Shown here: positions 1 through 21,730 of the stretch, piece by piece
How the letters are laid out: every line of letters begins with the position of its first letter
How positions within the stretch are numbered: position 1 is the first letter of the stretch
Virus record (IMG/VR): IMGVR_UViG_3300010299_000076
Location: 1 to 21,730 of that record
DNA from: a virus
Length of the DNA: 21,730 nt
Direction: 5' to 3' (one strand)
The notes under the pieces: generated by a model
Told to the model about the DNA's origin: nothing
The model's database searches: none
Seen by the model: the letters and a program-made list of their open reading frames with translations, nothing else
Position numbers and translations under genes: made by a program

Positions 1-133
1 AAAAACCACCTTGTGCTTGATTATCTCCTGTTAGTGTGTACTCTAGTGACCATGTAATGTCATTATATGCATTATATAGATTTGTGCTTGCTATTATACA
101 AGCTGATCCTAAAGCTGGTTGTATAAAACTCAT
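1..133 (-). CDS. Partial virion-type protein, N-terminal 44 residues only
   Basis: The ATG at 133-131 overlaps the stop of the upstream fibre gene as TAATG, which suggests coupled translation. The frame stays open to the window edge, so only the first 44 residues are seen (MSFIQPALGSACIIAS..., then ...WSLEYTLTGDNQAQGGF). The sequence is small-residue and aromatic rich with no membrane segment or signal peptide. Its place as the next gene of the minus-strand tail-fibre run suggests another structural or adsorption protein, but this is inference from position. I do not recognise a family with certainty. Confidence 0.6.
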   Translation of the reverse strand, partial: MSFIQPALGSACIIASTNLYNAYNDITWSLEYTLTGDNQAQGGF

Positions 134-2673
134 TAAAAATCAACTTTTACTGGGTTATATCTGATATTATTTACAAAATTTTGTGAATAATGGTGTTGAA
201 ACGGATATTCACCCCAAGTATATAATTCACCGCCCGAAGTTATTGCAAATACTGTTTTATTGTTAGCGTCCGTCCCCCGCCCAACAAAAAAATCACTGTA
301 TTTTATATTATATGGTTGCTTTGCTTTGACAAAAATAGTAGACGCAGTGTTATTACCTATTCCCAATTCACCTTTTATATTTTCACCAGCACCCCATATT
401 TCTCCACTTGAATTTAGTGCATAGAGTGTTGTGCGTGCATCGTAGCCATGTGCTTTTATTTTTATTATTCCTGAATTAGTAAAATCACCACTAAATGCTG
501 CTGTCGGTGCAAGTACATTAGTATTATTTCCTATACCACACGCACCATCTATATTATACCCCCACGTTCTTATCGTGTTATCTGTCATTAGTGCCATAAT
601 TGTGCTGCGTGAATTGTCAGAACAACTTATAGTACTTACACCAGTTAATTGAGTGTTAGTTGTTCCATCTGCACAAACAGGCGTAAATGTCGTTACATCA
701 CTTGTGCTATTAATACCCAGCTGCCCCACACCGTTATATCCTGTTGACCACAATTTTCCTCCAGACAATAAAAACGTTGAGTGTACAGAGCCGTTTGATT
801 GAACTGTGCTGTATATCTCATCTGCTGTATGTACTGACTGCGTCCAGCCTGTAATTACATCTGTAGTTGTTCCGTTGCCGAGGTTGCCGCGACCGTTGTA
901 TCCACAATAATGCACCGCTGATAGTGTATCAATAGCAAATGAGTAATTGTAAGTATTACCACAAAATGAATATATATTCCTAATTAGCAAGCCACTTAAC
1001 GAATTTGCATTGACATTTACAGGTGAATTAAATTGTGTTGTAGTTGAGTTTAAGCCACATTGACCGAAGCCGTTATATCCCCAAGCAAACGCACTTCCAG
1101 ACTCTGTTAAAGCAAATACGTGCATATTTGATGAATACAAAGTACCGCCACTTCCACCTACACTAATTTTAGTTACCTTGCCCGCTGCGGACGGTATTTC
1201 TACCTTTACAAAATTTGTAACGTATAATTCACCTGATCCTTGGCCACTTCTACCGAATATGTTTTCTCCCGAGCTATATACATTACCGCTATTTGTTAAA
1301 ACAAACGTGGTTCCGTTGGCACCGTATATCTGCACCGGAATTTCATCTGCGTCATCAAATTCAATCGGCACGTGTTCGAGATTATAATAATCACCACCCC
1401 TATAATAACCAAGCCCTGCAGATCCTCTATGATCAATTCCGGAGTAGATGACATGATTATTACGTCTATCTATAAACATGAAGTAACCAGGCGAATTGCT
1501 ACCATTGCTTCCATTAACTTCCGACATTATAGGAAGTGTTAATACTGTATTTTCAAAACCTATACTATTAAACAATGTATCTACGTAAGTTTTACTCACG
1601 TAATCAGGTACTCTTATAAGATATTCTTTTAGTTCAGATTGAGGCGTCTCGAATGATGTAACAGCCTCTGCTGCTGTTACATCCCAGCACGATAAACTTT
1701 CACCAAACGAAATTGTTGTTGGGTAAATAATACTATCTTCAAGATATTTGATTATATATACATAATCGCTCGATGACAAATTAGGTATACTAAAGGTATT
1801 GGTTCCTGTTGTACCGTAATATGTGCTAATTGCAGCTGATAATTCTGGATAATCGACACCGTTTAATGTTCTTCCATCACATATAAAATATCCATATGGA
1901 ACTTCATATGCTGAAACTTCATTACCTATACTTCCACCCGAACCATATTGAAGAATTGTACCTACTGGCACCTGATTTCCTGAAAGAACAAGATATTGTG
2001 TAATTGAATTGCCTGGTTTCCACGATATAGTACCATTACCATCGGTTACCATTGAGTATCCGTTAGGCCCATCAAACTGAGGTAAATTATAAGCAGTAGC
2101 ACCTCCAACATTACCAAATTTTAATGTTGCAGGAATGCGTAAAAATGTACTATTGCGTGTGGTAATGGTATCAAACTCCTGAGCTGCGGTTGTTTGAATT
2201 GTGGTACCGCTTTTCTCAAGCCCGACACCAGCTACACCATCATCAATTTGAGCGGCACTAATAGTATTTACTTGTAATACATTTTTTGTACCATTATATG
2301 CTTCTAACTTTATTGTGGTGCCATCTACTCTATTAGCTGCTGCACCTAAAAATACAGTCCAATTAGAAATATCTGCTGGGTTATCGGTTGTTAAGCGGTA
2401 TAGTGCACCTGCATCCGCATCAAATGCTAAATCACCAATAACAGCCTGTGTATATTGGTTCGGGCTGACGCTACCGTAAAATAAATTATATGATACAGGA
2501 TTACCGCCAGAAGTTGCTCCATCACCTATAAATAATCGCGTTGTATCTACAGCATATCCTAGCTCACCTTCGGAGAGTACAATATTTCGACGTTCAATAT
2601 CTGAACCACGCCTAATTAATAACTTTAATAGTGTTGATTGTGTAAGTGTTATTTGGTTTGCACCGTTACTCAT
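133..2673 (-). CDS. Tail fibre with Mtd-type N-terminus, tail-collar domain and C-terminal RCC1-like propeller
   Basis: An 846-residue protein, probably a distal tail fibre that contacts the host. Residues 20-57 carry the RRGSD..R...L..GE.GY..DT.RLFIGDG motif found at the start of many phage fibres (the Mtd N-terminal/hyaluronidase-type attachment module). Residues 236-300 (VPVGTI...GYFICDGRTL...YPELS...F.IPNL) form a phage tail-collar domain. Residues 450-830 hold repeated G-[YE]-N-x-x-G-x-x-G motifs (466, 531, 590, 644, 704 and 761, with a closing WGE at 820), the pattern of a seven-bladed RCC1-like beta-propeller. There is no signal peptide or membrane segment. The start is preceded by TTAAATA with a 5-base spacer and no Shine-Dalgarno sequence. 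It shares its N-terminal module with the next upstream fibre (2701-4029). Fibre identity is well supported by the domains; the receptor is unknown. Confidence 0.88.
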   Translation of the reverse strand: MSNGANQITLTQSTLLKLLIRRGSDIERRNIVLSEGELGYAVDTTRLFIGDGATSGGNPVSYNLFYGSVSPNQYTQAVIGDLAFDADAGALYRLTTDNPADISNWTVFLGAAANRVDGTTIKLEAYNGTKNVLQVNTISAAQIDDGVAGVGLEKSGTTIQTTAAQEFDTITTRNSTFLRIPATLKFGNVGGATAYNLPQFDGPNGYSMVTDGNGTISWKPGNSITQYLVLSGNQVPVGTILQYGSGGSIGNEVSAYEVPYGYFICDGRTLNGVDYPELSAAISTYYGTTGTNTFSIPNLSSSDYVYIIKYLEDSIIYPTTISFGESLSCWDVTAAEAVTSFETPQSELKEYLIRVPDYVSKTYVDTLFNSIGFENTVLTLPIMSEVNGSNGSNSPGYFMFIDRRNNHVIYSGIDHRGSAGLGYYRGGDYYNLEHVPIEFDDADEIPVQIYGANGTTFVLTNSGNVYSSGENIFGRSGQGSGELYVTNFVKVEIPSAAGKVTKISVGGSGGTLYSSNMHVFALTESGSAFAWGYNGFGQCGLNSTTTQFNSPVNVNANSLSGLLIRNIYSFCGNTYNYSFAIDTLSAVHYCGYNGRGNLGNGTTTDVITGWTQSVHTADEIYSTVQSNGSVHSTFLLSGGKLWSTGYNGVGQLGINSTSDVTTFTPVCADGTTNTQLTGVSTISCSDNSRSTIMALMTDNTIRTWGYNIDGACGIGNNTNVLAPTAAFSGDFTNSGIIKIKAHGYDARTTLYALNSSGEIWGAGENIKGELGIGNNTASTIFVKAKQPYNIKYSDFFVGRGTDANNKTVFAITSGGELYTWGEYPFQHHYSQNFVNNIRYNPVKVDF
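184..1326 (-). repeat. RCC1-type propeller repeats inside the fibre
   Basis: Residues about 450-830 of the 846-residue fibre repeat every 50-65 residues with cores such as WGYNGFGQCG, CGYNGRGNLG, TGYNGVGQLG, WGYNIDGACG and GAGENIKGELG, followed by GN.TT- or N.T-like turns. Six full cores plus a final WGEYPF segment fit a closed seven-bladed propeller. The repeats are protein-level; the DNA copies are diverged. Confidence 0.8.
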
Positions 2674-19029: not shown

Positions 19030-19950
19030 ATGGCAAAAAGAAGTAGAGAATTTTATTTAGGTAATCCTAATCTACCCACAAGCACTGCAACGTATGAATA
19101 TACGCCGAAGATGATTAAAGATCTTCAAAAGTGTGCAAATAATCTATTATTCTTCGCAGAGAATTTTTTCTATATAATCGACCCTGATAAGGGCCGCACT
19201 TTAATTAAATTATACAAATATCAAAAAGAAGCTCTTCGAATGATGAGAGACAATCGATATAATATTTTGTTAGCATCCCGACAACTCGGCAAAACCGTAA
19301 TGTTAACAATATACGCACTCTGGACAGCTTGTTTTAATATTGATCAGAATATAATGATTGTTGCTAATAAGGAGAGCACAGCAATTGAAATTTTTAGACG
19401 TGTTAGATTAGCATATGAACAGCTTCCAAATTATATTAAGCCTGGTGTGGTTGAATATGGAAAGACGAGCATGATTTTAGATAATGGATCTAGAATAGGT
19501 ATATCTACAACAACTGGATCTGCTGCTCGTGGTCAAGCGCTCAATGTTCTTTTGCTTGATGAGCTTGCATTTATTGAACCTGCATCAATTATGGAAGATT
19601 TTTGGCGCTCGGTATGGCCAACAATTTCACGTTCAAAATTCTCTAAAGTATTAATTGCTTCAACACCAAATGGCACTGAAAATTTATTTTATAAATTATA
19701 CGACGGCTCACAAAAAGGTGAAAATGGATTTGCGTCAATGACAATTCCGTGGGACCAGGTGCCGGGAAGAGATGAAAAGTGGAAGCAATCACAAATTAAG
19801 GCATTAGGTAGTGTTGAAGCGTTCGAACAAGAGTTTAATTGCGTCGTGGGCGAAACTGACATTAGTGTAATAAATACAGATAATGATTACACTGAAACAA
19901 TGCAAATTAAAGAAGCGTACAAAAGGCTGGAACTCGGGAAAGTATCGTAA
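19030..19950 (+). CDS. terL: Large terminase, ATPase half fused to N-intein (split gene, part 1)
   Basis: A 306-residue protein. Residues 1-270 are the packaging ATPase domain of a T4 gp17-type large terminase: Walker A SRQLGKT at 83-89, TTTGSAARGQ at 160-169, Walker B LLLDE with Asp177 and Glu178, and the coupling motif STPNG at 211-215. This domain hydrolyses ATP to drive DNA into the prohead. After EQEFN (266-270), Cys271 starts an N-intein and the protein ends 36 residues later, so the nuclease domain is missing; it is encoded separately from 20808. Full gp17 is about 610 residues. The conserved Cys of the family motif (EF-x-C-x-F) marks the insertion point. The start has ATAAATA with a 5-base spacer. 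A sequencing frameshift is unlikely because both intein halves are intact. Confidence 0.93.
   Translation: MAKRSREFYLGNPNLPTSTATYEYTPKMIKDLQKCANNLLFFAENFFYIIDPDKGRTLIKLYKYQKEALRMMRDNRYNILLASRQLGKTVMLTIYALWTACFNIDQNIMIVANKESTAIEIFRRVRLAYEQLPNYIKPGVVEYGKTSMILDNGSRIGISTTTGSAARGQALNVLLLDELAFIEPASIMEDFWRSVWPTISRSKFSKVLIASTPNGTENLFYKLYDGSQKGENGFASMTIPWDQVPGRDEKWKQSQIKALGSVEAFEQEFNCVVGETDISVINTDNDYTETMQIKEAYKRLELGKVS
19840..19947 (+). other. N-intein (36 residues) of an atypical split intein
   Basis: Residues 271-306 of the first terminase gene. It begins with the catalytic Cys (CVVGETDISV, intein block A, where G-[DE]-T is typical) and ends near IKEAYKRLELGKVS. Block B is absent here and is found in the C-part, so the break lies far nearer the N-end than in canonical split inteins (about 100 residues). 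The known AceL-TerL intein also has a very short N-part (about 25 residues) ending in a YKRL-like helix, as I recall it. The last 22 codons overlap the endonuclease gene in another frame. Confidence 0.88.
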
Positions 19951-20827
19951 AGATCCTAAAAAGAATCAAATAGCGATTCAAAAATATAAAAAGACACTTG
20001 CTTTAAAAGGTATTACTAGATCTAGTATAACTAAGAGTAGCTATATAAAAGAACAACTAACAATCGACAATGCAAGTGTGTATGCGCTTGAAGAGACTAT
20101 TGATAAACTAACATATACTTATACTAATTTTTTTGGTAGATCTGGCAACCGTAAATTAAAAAAGTACGACATCTCATTGTTCAAAAGTCTATCACACCAT
20201 ACGAGCAGATATAATGTATATTTTAGTAACGGTAAAGTTCCCTTTAGCTGTCAGTTACTAATTATAGGCAAGTATGGCTGTAAACCACCCAAATCAATTT
20301 TTTGTTATTGTGGAAAAAGGATTTGCTATAATAAAGTCACACAACAATTCAATCATAACTCAATATGTAGAGAGTGTGGTATTCCTATGAATAGCAAGAA
20401 ATATTTTATGCACCGGTATGGTGACATATGGGAGGAAGAATACGAAAAATATTTTAAGCGGCCCTACATGCAGAAGATTATGTCTGCGCGTGGTCGCCGC
20501 GCAGTTCAAGTTCGTAGAGAGCGTGGTGATATAGGATTGGTAGCTAAAGGTAAATATGAAAAGGTAATATTAGATCATATTGAACAAAAGCATCAGATTA
20601 AAATAGATAGAAATTTTACTGTCGAAGGATTTTATCCTGATGGGTACTGTCACGAAACAAATACAATTTACGAAGTATATGAGCCTTATCATAATTATAG
20701 AGTAGAGAAAGACAATGTACGCCAGAAAATTATAACTGACGCATTAAATTGTAATTTTATTATAATACGTCACGAATCAAAATTTGATATAAATAAAATA
20801 AAAATTGATGAATTTTATAGAAAATAA
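19883..20827 (+). CDS. Free-standing homing endonuclease, Vsr/EDxHD-like, between intein halves
   Basis: A 314-residue protein. The N-terminal 45 residues are very basic (KLKKRTKGWNSGKYRKDPKK), likely DNA-binding. A Cys cluster (Cys141, Cys143, Cys148, then Cys162 and Cys165 in ICRECG) suggests a zinc knuckle. The C-terminal domain (about 222-300) has KYEKVILDHIEQK, FYPDGY with Asp253, YEVYEPYH (Glu264, Glu267, His270), KDNVRQKII and NCNFIIIRHE, the pattern of Vsr-like nucleases including the EDxHD family reported with split inteins in fractured phage genes. The usual Asp two residues after Glu264 is Tyr266, which may affect activity. The gene overlaps the N-intein gene by 68 bases and the C-intein gene by 20. 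The ATG at 19883 is the only Met before residue 169; a later non-ATG start is possible. The expected role is cutting intein-less terL alleles to spread the intein. Confidence 0.82.
   Translation: MITLKQCKLKKRTKGWNSGKYRKDPKKNQIAIQKYKKTLALKGITRSSITKSSYIKEQLTIDNASVYALEETIDKLTYTYTNFFGRSGNRKLKKYDISLFKSLSHHTSRYNVYFSNGKVPFSCQLLIIGKYGCKPPKSIFCYCGKRICYNKVTQQFNHNSICRECGIPMNSKKYFMHRYGDIWEEEYEKYFKRPYMQKIMSARGRRAVQVRRERGDIGLVAKGKYEKVILDHIEQKHQIKIDRNFTVEGFYPDGYCHETNTIYEVYEPYHNYRVEKDNVRQKIITDALNCNFIIIRHESKFDINKIKIDEFYRK
20788..20795 (+). promoter_or_regulatory. Exact TATAAATA late-promoter core before the C-intein gene
   Basis: TATAAATA lies inside the 3' end of the endonuclease gene, 12 bases before the ATG at 20808. 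It is identical to the T4 late-promoter core and could give the C-intein/nuclease gene its own late transcript, so that both terminase halves are made at the same time. The spacing differs from the usual 5-6 bases. Local A/T richness makes chance occurrence possible. Confidence 0.45.
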
Positions 20828-21134
20828 GAAATATAAAATACTAACACCTACCGGGTATCAGTTTTTTGATGGTATACGCAAAACAGAAAAAGATTGTGTT
20901 GAGATAACCACAGACATGTATACACTTTCTTGCAGTACAGATCACTTGGTGTTTATTAGTGACGAAATATATAAGCCTGTAAGTCAACTGTTTATTGGTG
21001 AGCCTATTTTAGATAGAGAAGGAAAGAAGACGTATGTAACGAGTATACGCCGAATAGGAAAGTTAGAGGTATATGATGCAGTAAATGTTGCAAGTGGTTC
21101 AAAGTATTATACAGGTGATATTTTATCGCATAAC
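20808..21134 (+). other. C-intein (109 residues) of the atypical split intein
   Basis: Residues 1-109 of the second terminase gene. After MNFIENKKYKILTPTGYQFF it has the block B motif SCSTDHLVFI at 41-50 (Thr-Asp-His), block F LEVYDAVNVASGSKYYTGDI at 86-105, and block G ILSHN at 105-109 ending in the His-Asn needed for cyclisation, followed by Cys110 as the +1 residue. All splicing motifs not in the N-part are here, and no endonuclease domain is embedded. Confidence 0.9.
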
Positions 21135-21730
21135 TGCCAGTTCCACCATAAAGGAGAAGCATCAATCGATGTAGAGTTATTTGAAGAATTTAAAAAGCAT
21201 TGTAGAGAGCCAGAATTTGAACTTGAACAGGACATATATAAAATATGGGCACCACCATCCGAAGATAAGATATATGTTGTGGGTGTCGATATTTCTGAAG
21301 GTGTTGGACAGAATTATTCTGTCATACAAGTGTTAGATATAACTGATCTTACAACTATAGAGCAAGTTGCTGTATATAGAAATAATGTAATTGATCCTTC
21401 TAACTTTACAACAAAGCTCAACGAGGTTTTGCAGCAGTGGGGAAAACCGCTAGTTATAATTGAGCGTAATAATTGTGGTTCTCAGGTTGTTGATAATTTA
21501 CGTAATATGCATCAGTATGAAAATATTGTAAGCTACGGTGCTGAACTTGCAGGCAGAAAAAAGAATTTACTTGGAGCTGTTGCACATACAAATACTAAGG
21601 GACGCGGTGTTTTGAATATGCGGTATTGGGTTAATACATTAAAAGCAGTACGCTTTAATGATATTCAAACATTAATGGAGATGAAGGATTTTGTTCGCAA
21701 GCCTAATGGAACATGGAGTGCACGTGGTAC
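20808..21730 (+). CDS. terL: C-intein fused to large terminase nuclease half (split gene, part 2; partial)
   Basis: The frame opens at ATG 20808, 20 bases before the endonuclease stop, and runs past the window end (307 codons seen). Residues 1-109 are the C-intein; Cys110 begins the C-extein CQFHHKGEASIDVELFEEF. The extein is the RNase H-fold nuclease domain of a T4 gp17-type terminase, which cuts concatemeric DNA during packaging: VVGVDISEGVGQNYS (Asp161, first metal ligand), then LVIIERNNCGSQVVDNL (Glu219 region), then FVRKPNGTWSARG just before the expected third acidic ligand, which lies outside the window. Trans-splicing with the first part would rebuild terminase. An exact TATAAATA lies 12 bases upstream; no Shine-Dalgarno sequence is visible. 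Confidence 0.92.
   Translation, partial: MNFIENKKYKILTPTGYQFFDGIRKTEKDCVEITTDMYTLSCSTDHLVFISDEIYKPVSQLFIGEPILDREGKKTYVTSIRRIGKLEVYDAVNVASGSKYYTGDILSHNCQFHHKGEASIDVELFEEFKKHCREPEFELEQDIYKIWAPPSEDKIYVVGVDISEGVGQNYSVIQVLDITDLTTIEQVAVYRNNVIDPSNFTTKLNEVLQQWGKPLVIIERNNCGSQVVDNLRNMHQYENIVSYGAELAGRKKNLLGAVAHTNTKGRGVLNMRYWVNTLKAVRFNDIQTLMEMKDFVRKPNGTWSARG

What the first reader, a model, noticed from the sequence alone, without database searches (positions are those of the whole stretch)
19030..21730. Terminase gene fractured by an atypical split intein with an endonuclease gene in between
Seen: the ATPase half of a gp17-like terminase ends in a 36-residue N-intein (Cys271, block A only). A separate gene supplies a 109-residue C-intein with blocks B, F and G (TDH, HN, then Cys+1) followed by the nuclease half. 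Known: AceL-TerL/VidaL-class split inteins break close to the N-end, and 'fractured genes' have an endonuclease between halves. This locus combines both in one terL. The break separates the two catalytic domains of the motor, so packaging would depend on protein trans-splicing.
Basis: partly seen in the sequence, partly recalled or inferred. Interest (0 to 1): 0.93.

Follow-up and report, generated by a model that had tools for sequence, protein, structure and literature searches.

The report
Split-intein terminase carrying a homing endonuclease
An uncultured T4-like phage encodes its DNA-packaging motor as two proteins that a split intein should weld together, with a selfish DNA-cutting gene between them; the arrangement is real and mobile, but it is one more case of a kind that turns out to be common in phages.

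Summary
TerL residues 1-270 (ATPase) end in a 36-residue N-intein. A second gene carries a 109-residue C-intein, then Cys+1 and the nuclease half, which the contig end cuts off. Joined, the exteins align to an uninterrupted TerL at 78% identity with no gaps over 468 residues.

The intein belongs with the AceL/GOS/Cat-TerL atypical split inteins. The middle ORF belongs to an uncharacterised zinc-ribbon, PD-(D/E)XK-like endonuclease family. All 12 distinct full-length members found lie at this one site, between N- and C-intein genes.

A near-identical virus lacks the element (clean GAA|TGC junction). Intein and endonuclease trees agree with each other and conflict with the extein tree. So this is a mobile cassette, acquired separately by the window and by its closest extein relative.

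The claimed novelty, atypical split plus endonuclease in one terL, is not new: cultured Salmonella, Yersinia, Providencia and Vibrio phages show it. Trans-splicing and homing are inferred, not tested.

The surprise lies in relatives. TerL is fractured at four recurrent positions. Two contigs encode it as four polypeptides joined by three split inteins, one extein being 11 residues with Walker B.

The parts
19030..19839 (+). TerL N-extein, residues 1-270, T4 gp17-like ATPase half (Walker A SRQLGKT, Walker B LLLDE)
   Evidence: 3ezk E=6.5e-48; Terminase_6N; gapless alignment of the joined exteins to uninterrupted TerL
19840..19947 (+). N-intein, 36 aa, Cys1, block A only, stop at 19948-19950
   Evidence: aligns in register with the N-inteins of relatives
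19883..20827 (+). Endonuclease ORF, 314 aa, starts inside the N-intein gene in another frame, ends 20 nt into the C-intein gene
   Evidence: family of 12
20303..20377 (+). Invariant CxC...CxxC zinc-ribbon-like region of the endonuclease (C141, C143, C162, C165)
   Evidence: invariant in 12 of 12; zinc binding inferred
20549..20770 (+). PD-(D/E)XK-like C-terminal domain of the endonuclease (residues 223-296; PDGYC...YEVYE..H...D..R)
   Evidence: invariant residues; DUF559 sub-threshold E=0.021; model and fold comparison
20808..21134 (+). C-intein, 109 aa, blocks B, F and G, ends HN
   Evidence: 6dsl; model pLDDT 91, intein fold
21135..21730 (+). TerL C-extein, Cys+1 onward, RNase H-like nuclease half, cut off by the contig end
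   Evidence: 3c6a/3cpe gp17 nuclease; Terminase_6C E=9.8e-6
19840..21134 (+). Whole mobile cassette (1295 bp) between codons AAT and TGC
   Evidence: equivalent 1256-bp element in L001 is absent, with a clean junction, from near-identical L004

Best explanation
A mobile split-intein cassette sits in the linker between the ATPase and nuclease domains of a T4-type TerL. Three overlapping genes are translated separately: ATPase-IntN, endonuclease, IntC-nuclease. IntN and IntC should associate into one HINT fold and splice: Cys1 N-S acyl shift, transfer to Cys+1, Asn cyclisation, S-N shift. This gives full-length TerL with no trace of the element. The free-standing PD-(D/E)XK-like endonuclease most likely cuts uninterrupted terL alleles at the same site in co-infecting phages, so repair copies the whole cassette. 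Shown by sequence: anatomy, intein family, precise insertion, and horizontal acquisition with intein and endonuclease moving together. Inferred: trans-splicing, DNA cutting, homing, and dependence of packaging on splicing.
For: Intein identity with the splice residues (C1, block-B His, HN, C+1) intact and H46/HNC invariant in 13 C-inteins. Joined exteins 78.0% identical, 0 gaps over 468 aa, to uninterrupted TerL. Empty allele: L001 and L004 flanks 97.5% and 93.6% identical with the 1256-bp element cleanly absent from L004. All 12 full-length family endonucleases lie between IntN and IntC at this site. Trees: exteins group window+L001 (100/98) and reject L001+L034 (p-AU 0.003); endonuclease and C-intein group L001+L034 (100/100, 97/95) and reject window+L001 (p-AU 0.0008, 0.004). 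Pairwise identities agree: window-L001 exteins 72%, element 33%; L001-L034 exteins 53%, element 65-68%. Purifying selection for L028/L029: dN/dS 0.16 endonuclease, 0.04 C-intein. No intron family at this locus.
Against: No splicing, cutting or homing assay exists here. The endonuclease has only a sub-threshold DUF559 hit and no credible sequence match in the PDB; its fold match is not decisive (Z about 8, tied with other nucleases). IntN and IntC were not modelled as a complex. The contig end hides the last part of TerL. No ribosome-binding site is obvious at the endonuclease or C-intein start.
Confidence: 0.88

Rival explanations
1. The two halves work without splicing, as a gene-in-pieces terminase whose subunits associate non-covalently; the intein parts are decaying.
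For: The break lies at a domain linker, where separate domains could work; a split ribonucleotide reductase that keeps function is cited in PMC10448857.
Against: All splice residues and blocks intact in window and relatives; C-intein under strong purifying selection in L028/L029; at other sites related cassettes split the ATPase domain itself, once isolating 11 residues, where unspliced function is hard to imagine.
Confidence: 0.06
2. Assembly or sequencing frameshift: in reality one uninterrupted cis-intein with a nested endonuclease domain.
For: Some relatives have the endonuclease fused in frame to IntC (Vibrio Va1) or to IntN (Vibrio VP-1, Escherichia TB34).
Against: 12 distinct loci keep the three parts in separate frames, with overlaps of varying length; cultured phage genomes show the same three-gene layout.
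Confidence: 0.02
3. The break is removed at the RNA level by a group I or II intron, the middle ORF being an intron-encoded endonuclease.
For: Phage ICP1 terL is RNA-spliced (PMC10448857).
Against: No Rfam intron match in the window at gathering score, nor at relaxed threshold over 19500-21400; the flanks of the middle ORF code for conserved intein halves that an intron would not need.
Confidence: 0.01
4. Split intein real, but the middle ORF is no longer, or never was, a homing endonuclease for this site (passenger nuclease or regulator).
For: No experimentally known member of its family; weak family matches; split inteins persist without any endonuclease at this site in L079 and L081.
Against: Strict association of the family with this site in 12 of 12 loci; phylogeny congruent with the intein; purifying selection; conserved nuclease-like motif.
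Confidence: 0.08

Closest known systems
AceL-TerL, GOS-TerL and engineered consensus Cat intein (atypical TerL split inteins)
   Same: TerL gene, short N-intein (25, 37 and 30 aa in PMC11766414; 36 here), S2-type split, Cys+1; best profile match Cat C-intein E=1.4e-24. L001 and L034 fit Ser1/Cys+1 as in GOS-TerL
   Different: New sequence (C-intein 34% identical to Cat in the fold alignment); here with an endonuclease gene in place. Whether the original AceL/GOS loci carry one could not be checked (papers not held)
Fractured genes (Dassa et al. 2009, NAR 37:2560)
   Same: Essential phage gene broken by a split intein with a free-standing endonuclease gene between; features recalled, paper not held
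   Different: Host gene TerL; N-proximal split; endonuclease family outside Pfam/NCBIfam/PHROGs thresholds
Fractured terL of cultured phages: Salmonella SG1, Yersinia phiR1-RT, Pseudomonas PspYZU05, Providencia PSTRCR_127, Serratia 92A1, Vibrio Va1, Vibrio VP-1
   Same: TerL in two genes with C-intein-led second half and an endonuclease between or fused
   Different: SG1-type split in the ATPase domain (DE|CAF) with a TnsA-like nuclease; PSTRCR/92A1 one codon away with GIY-YIG; VP-1 same site with GIY-YIG fused to IntN; Va1 same site with a nuclease sharing the N-terminal zinc-ribbon region (hhalign 96.9%) fused to IntC
I-Bth0305I / Vsr-like homing endonucleases
   Same: PD-(D/E)XK-type catalytic domain; 3r3p aligns at Z 8.1, 85 residues, 19% identity
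   Different: Other nucleases tie in score, no sequence-level hit, different N-terminal region

Membership tests
AceL/GOS/Cat-TerL atypical split intein | Inserted in TerL before Cys+1 with native Cys+1 extein residue | tested here: met
   EQEFN|...|CQFHH; gapless joined exteins
AceL/GOS/Cat-TerL atypical split intein | Split close to the N-end, N-intein about 25-37 aa, block B in the C-intein | tested here: met
   36 + 109 aa; block-B His (H46) in the C-intein, invariant in 13
AceL/GOS/Cat-TerL atypical split intein | Homology to the family | tested here: met
   Cat C-intein 6dsl E=1.4e-24, full length; fold
AceL/GOS/Cat-TerL atypical split intein | Trans-splicing activity | not testable with these tools
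   needs protein expression
VidaL class | S1 split, N-intein about 16 aa | tested here: not met
   N-intein 36 aa; VidaL values from PMC13014065
Fractured genes (Dassa 2009) | Conserved gene broken by a split intein with a free-standing endonuclease gene between the halves | tested here: met
Fractured genes (Dassa 2009) | Mobile: empty alleles and discordant phylogeny | tested here: met
Vsr-like (I-Bth0305I) homing endonuclease family | Sequence match to Vsr or a related family model | tested here: inconclusive
   only DUF559, E=0.021, below its cut-off; 4 of 12 members
Vsr-like (I-Bth0305I) homing endonuclease family | Fold of the catalytic domain | tested here: inconclusive
   3r3p Z 8.1, tied with tRNA-splicing endonucleases and resolvases
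Homing endonuclease | Cuts the empty cognate site and promotes its own copying | not testable with these tools
   association with the site 12 of 12 is indirect

The most novel reading that the evidence does not exclude
The window is the simple form of a wider state. In these phages terL is a hot spot for split-intein cassettes at four recurrent positions (near residues 89, 173, 179-185 and 271). In some viruses several cassettes stack, so the packaging motor is assembled from up to four polypeptides by three non-cross-reacting split inteins. One middle fragment (L028, L079) is C-intein + 11-residue extein CLVIDEMAFIE, holding Walker B, + N-intein.
Probability: 0.75. Interest if true: 0.75.

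Novelty: new member of a known kind. Interest (0 to 1): 0.42.

Why it matters
It adds a natural atypical split intein whose homologues fall into Cys1 and Ser1 types with strongly diverged sequences, useful for labelling and for orthogonal protein ligation. It also defines a site-specific endonuclease family tied to one short stretch of terL, with empty, full and endonuclease-free alleles that make the homing cycle of fractured genes testable. The stacked relatives pose a sharper question: how several split inteins in one protein pair correctly, and why an essential motor gene tolerates being in four pieces.

Tried and rejected
Intron explanation: no Rfam match at gathering score over the window nor at relaxed E over 19500-21400, apart from one chance-level sRNA hit. 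PDB sequence search with the endonuclease, single and profile: chance hits only. PADLOC and NCBIfam: nothing for the endonuclease. Foldseek with the endonuclease: no match at E<=0.001; the second look gave many PD-(D/E)XK nucleases with tied Z, so no family assignment. Dassa 2009, the GOS-TerL paper and the Cat paper are not in the held library. A literature search for natural multi-split genes found nothing, which does not show absence. dN/dS for more distant pairs is unusable because dS is saturated.

Full report
Observation. The window is a whole IMG/VR record of 21,730 bases. ORF 19030-19950 is the ATPase half of a T4 gp17-like TerL (3ezk E=6.5e-48) ending in a 36-residue N-intein that starts at Cys271. 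ORF 20808-21730 is a 109-residue C-intein followed by Cys+1 and the RNase H-like nuclease half, truncated by the contig end. Between them, overlapping both by 68 and 20 nt in a third frame, lies a 314-codon ORF. Joined in silico, the exteins align to the uninterrupted TerL of L004 with 78.0% identity and no gap over 468 residues. Walker A, Walker B and the first two nuclease acids are present; the third lies beyond the contig end (assignment of these motifs rests on established knowledge of gp17).

Intein. The C-ORF hits the Cat C-intein (6dsl, E=6.8e-9) and VidaL (E=0.009). A 13-member C-intein profile hits Cat at 1.4e-24 over the full length, gp41-1 at 4e-12 and VidaL at 8e-8. The AlphaFold model (pLDDT 91) matches gp41-1, VidaL and Cat. 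The 36-residue N-intein fits the S2 split of AceL-TerL and GOS-TerL (PMC13014065; lengths 25, 37 and 30 aa for AceL, GOS and Cat in PMC11766414). Two relatives, L001 and L034, fit Ser1 rather than Cys1, because for L001 only then does the joined product match the empty allele LQEYE|CVFHH. That is the Ser1/Cys+1 pair described for GOS-TerL.

Endonuclease. A scan with the window and L001 proteins found 26 loci; 11 distinct full-length relatives plus the window form alignment A3. All 12 lie at this TerL site between an N-intein and a C-intein gene (the L027 C-intein is cut off by its contig end). Invariant features are CxC...CxxC and PDGYC...N..YE..E..H...D..R. DUF559 is hit below its cut-off. 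The model (pLDDT 84) places residues 223-314 among PD-(D/E)XK nucleases, including the homing endonuclease I-Bth0305I (Z 8.1), but without a decisive best match. Cultured Vibrio phage Va1 carries a related N-terminal region (hhalign 96.9%) fused in front of the C-intein at the same site.

Mobility. L001 (occupied) and L004 (empty) are 97.5% and 93.6% identical on the two sides of a clean 1256-bp difference. Most other relatives found with the extein query are empty at this site. The extein tree groups window and L001 (100/98); the endonuclease and C-intein trees group L001 with L034 (100/100; 97/95); each data set rejects the other grouping (p-AU 0.003, 0.0008, 0.004). The window and its closest extein relative therefore carry separately acquired elements. 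Intein and endonuclease trees agree on the well-supported groups tested, so they travel together. Endonuclease and C-intein are under purifying selection where dS is measurable (L028/L029 dN/dS 0.16 and 0.04).

Mechanism. The most likely working is protein trans-splicing of the two TerL halves plus homing by the middle gene. Splicing chemistry follows from the conserved residues and from the characterised relatives; it was not tested here. Cutting and homing are inferred from strict site association, congruent trees and empty alleles. In the window the endonuclease and C-intein genes start inside the preceding gene with no clear ribosome site, which suggests translational coupling (inference).

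Comparison with the known. Combining a split intein with an endonuclease in terL is common. A tblastn of the C-intein hits 106 phage records. Salmonella SG1, Yersinia phiR1-RT and Pseudomonas PspYZU05 have terL-N / middle ORF / terL-C gene triplets, annotated as endonuclease in the first two; Providencia PSTRCR_127 and Serratia 92A1 have GIY-YIG versions. The window is therefore a new member of a known kind, with an uncharacterised endonuclease family.

Beyond the finding. Scans with the neighbouring pieces and a TerL profile survey (automatic junction calls, a few spurious) gave about 60 distinct viral loci with C-intein-led TerL pieces: about 35 at Walker A, 12 near residue 173, 9 at 179-185 and 16 at 271, with two or more detected breaks in about ten. 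L028 encodes TerL in four polypeptides with three split inteins and three endonuclease types (GIY-YIG, TnsA-like, window family); L079 has four with an endonuclease at one break only. The joined exteins of both align to uninterrupted TerL without gaps at the junctions. One middle fragment carries an extein of 11 residues containing Walker B. L080 and L083, 99.97% identical to each other, repeat the two upstream breaks with site d empty. No natural precedent was found in the held literature, but the search was narrow.

Noticed in passing
L028:366-6246 (IMGVR_UViG_3300022187_001873); L079:1-4250 (IMGVR_UViG_3300044724_007116): TerL in four polypeptides with three split inteins; the second fragment is C-intein + 11-residue extein CLVIDEMAFIE (Walker B) + N-intein. 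L028 has a different endonuclease type at each break; L079 keeps one only at the middle break and also has a cis-intein at Walker A.
   Followed up: partly
L002:3830-3850 versus L003:6190-6215: Two contigs 99.66% identical over 6.2 kb differ by a single indel: a 9-nt in-frame deletion exactly at the empty site d (EAFEQEYN|C to EAFDN|C), as an imprecise repair scar or a resistant allele would look.
   Followed up: partly
L079:3015-3027 and L081:4394-4550: Split inteins at site d with no endonuclease gene between the halves: the endonuclease-lost stage of a homing cycle.
   Followed up: no
L002, L003, L005, L032, L079, L080 TerL near residue 90: Cis-intein at the Walker A motif (GK|T/S), LAGLIDADG-type where scanned (L080), sometimes in the same gene as split inteins further down.
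   Followed up: partly
Salicola phage SCTP-2 (MF360958.1) 256428-257321 (+) and 215993-218077 (-): A cultured phage with TerL pieces about 38 kb apart on opposite strands: one piece is C-intein + extein + N-intein, the other C-intein + extein with a further cis-intein. The N-terminal piece was not located.
   Followed up: partly
L030, L032, L033 versus the window; Providencia PSTRCR_127 and Serratia 92A1: The linker insertion site slides by one codon between lineages (QEFN|CQF, QEFGN|CF, QEH|CAEF), within one endonuclease family in the first two cases.
   Followed up: no
window 133-2673 (-): 846-aa protein with RCC1-like repeats (PHROG 'regulator of chromosome condensation') near tail-like genes; a similar repeat ORF lies in L027.
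   Followed up: no
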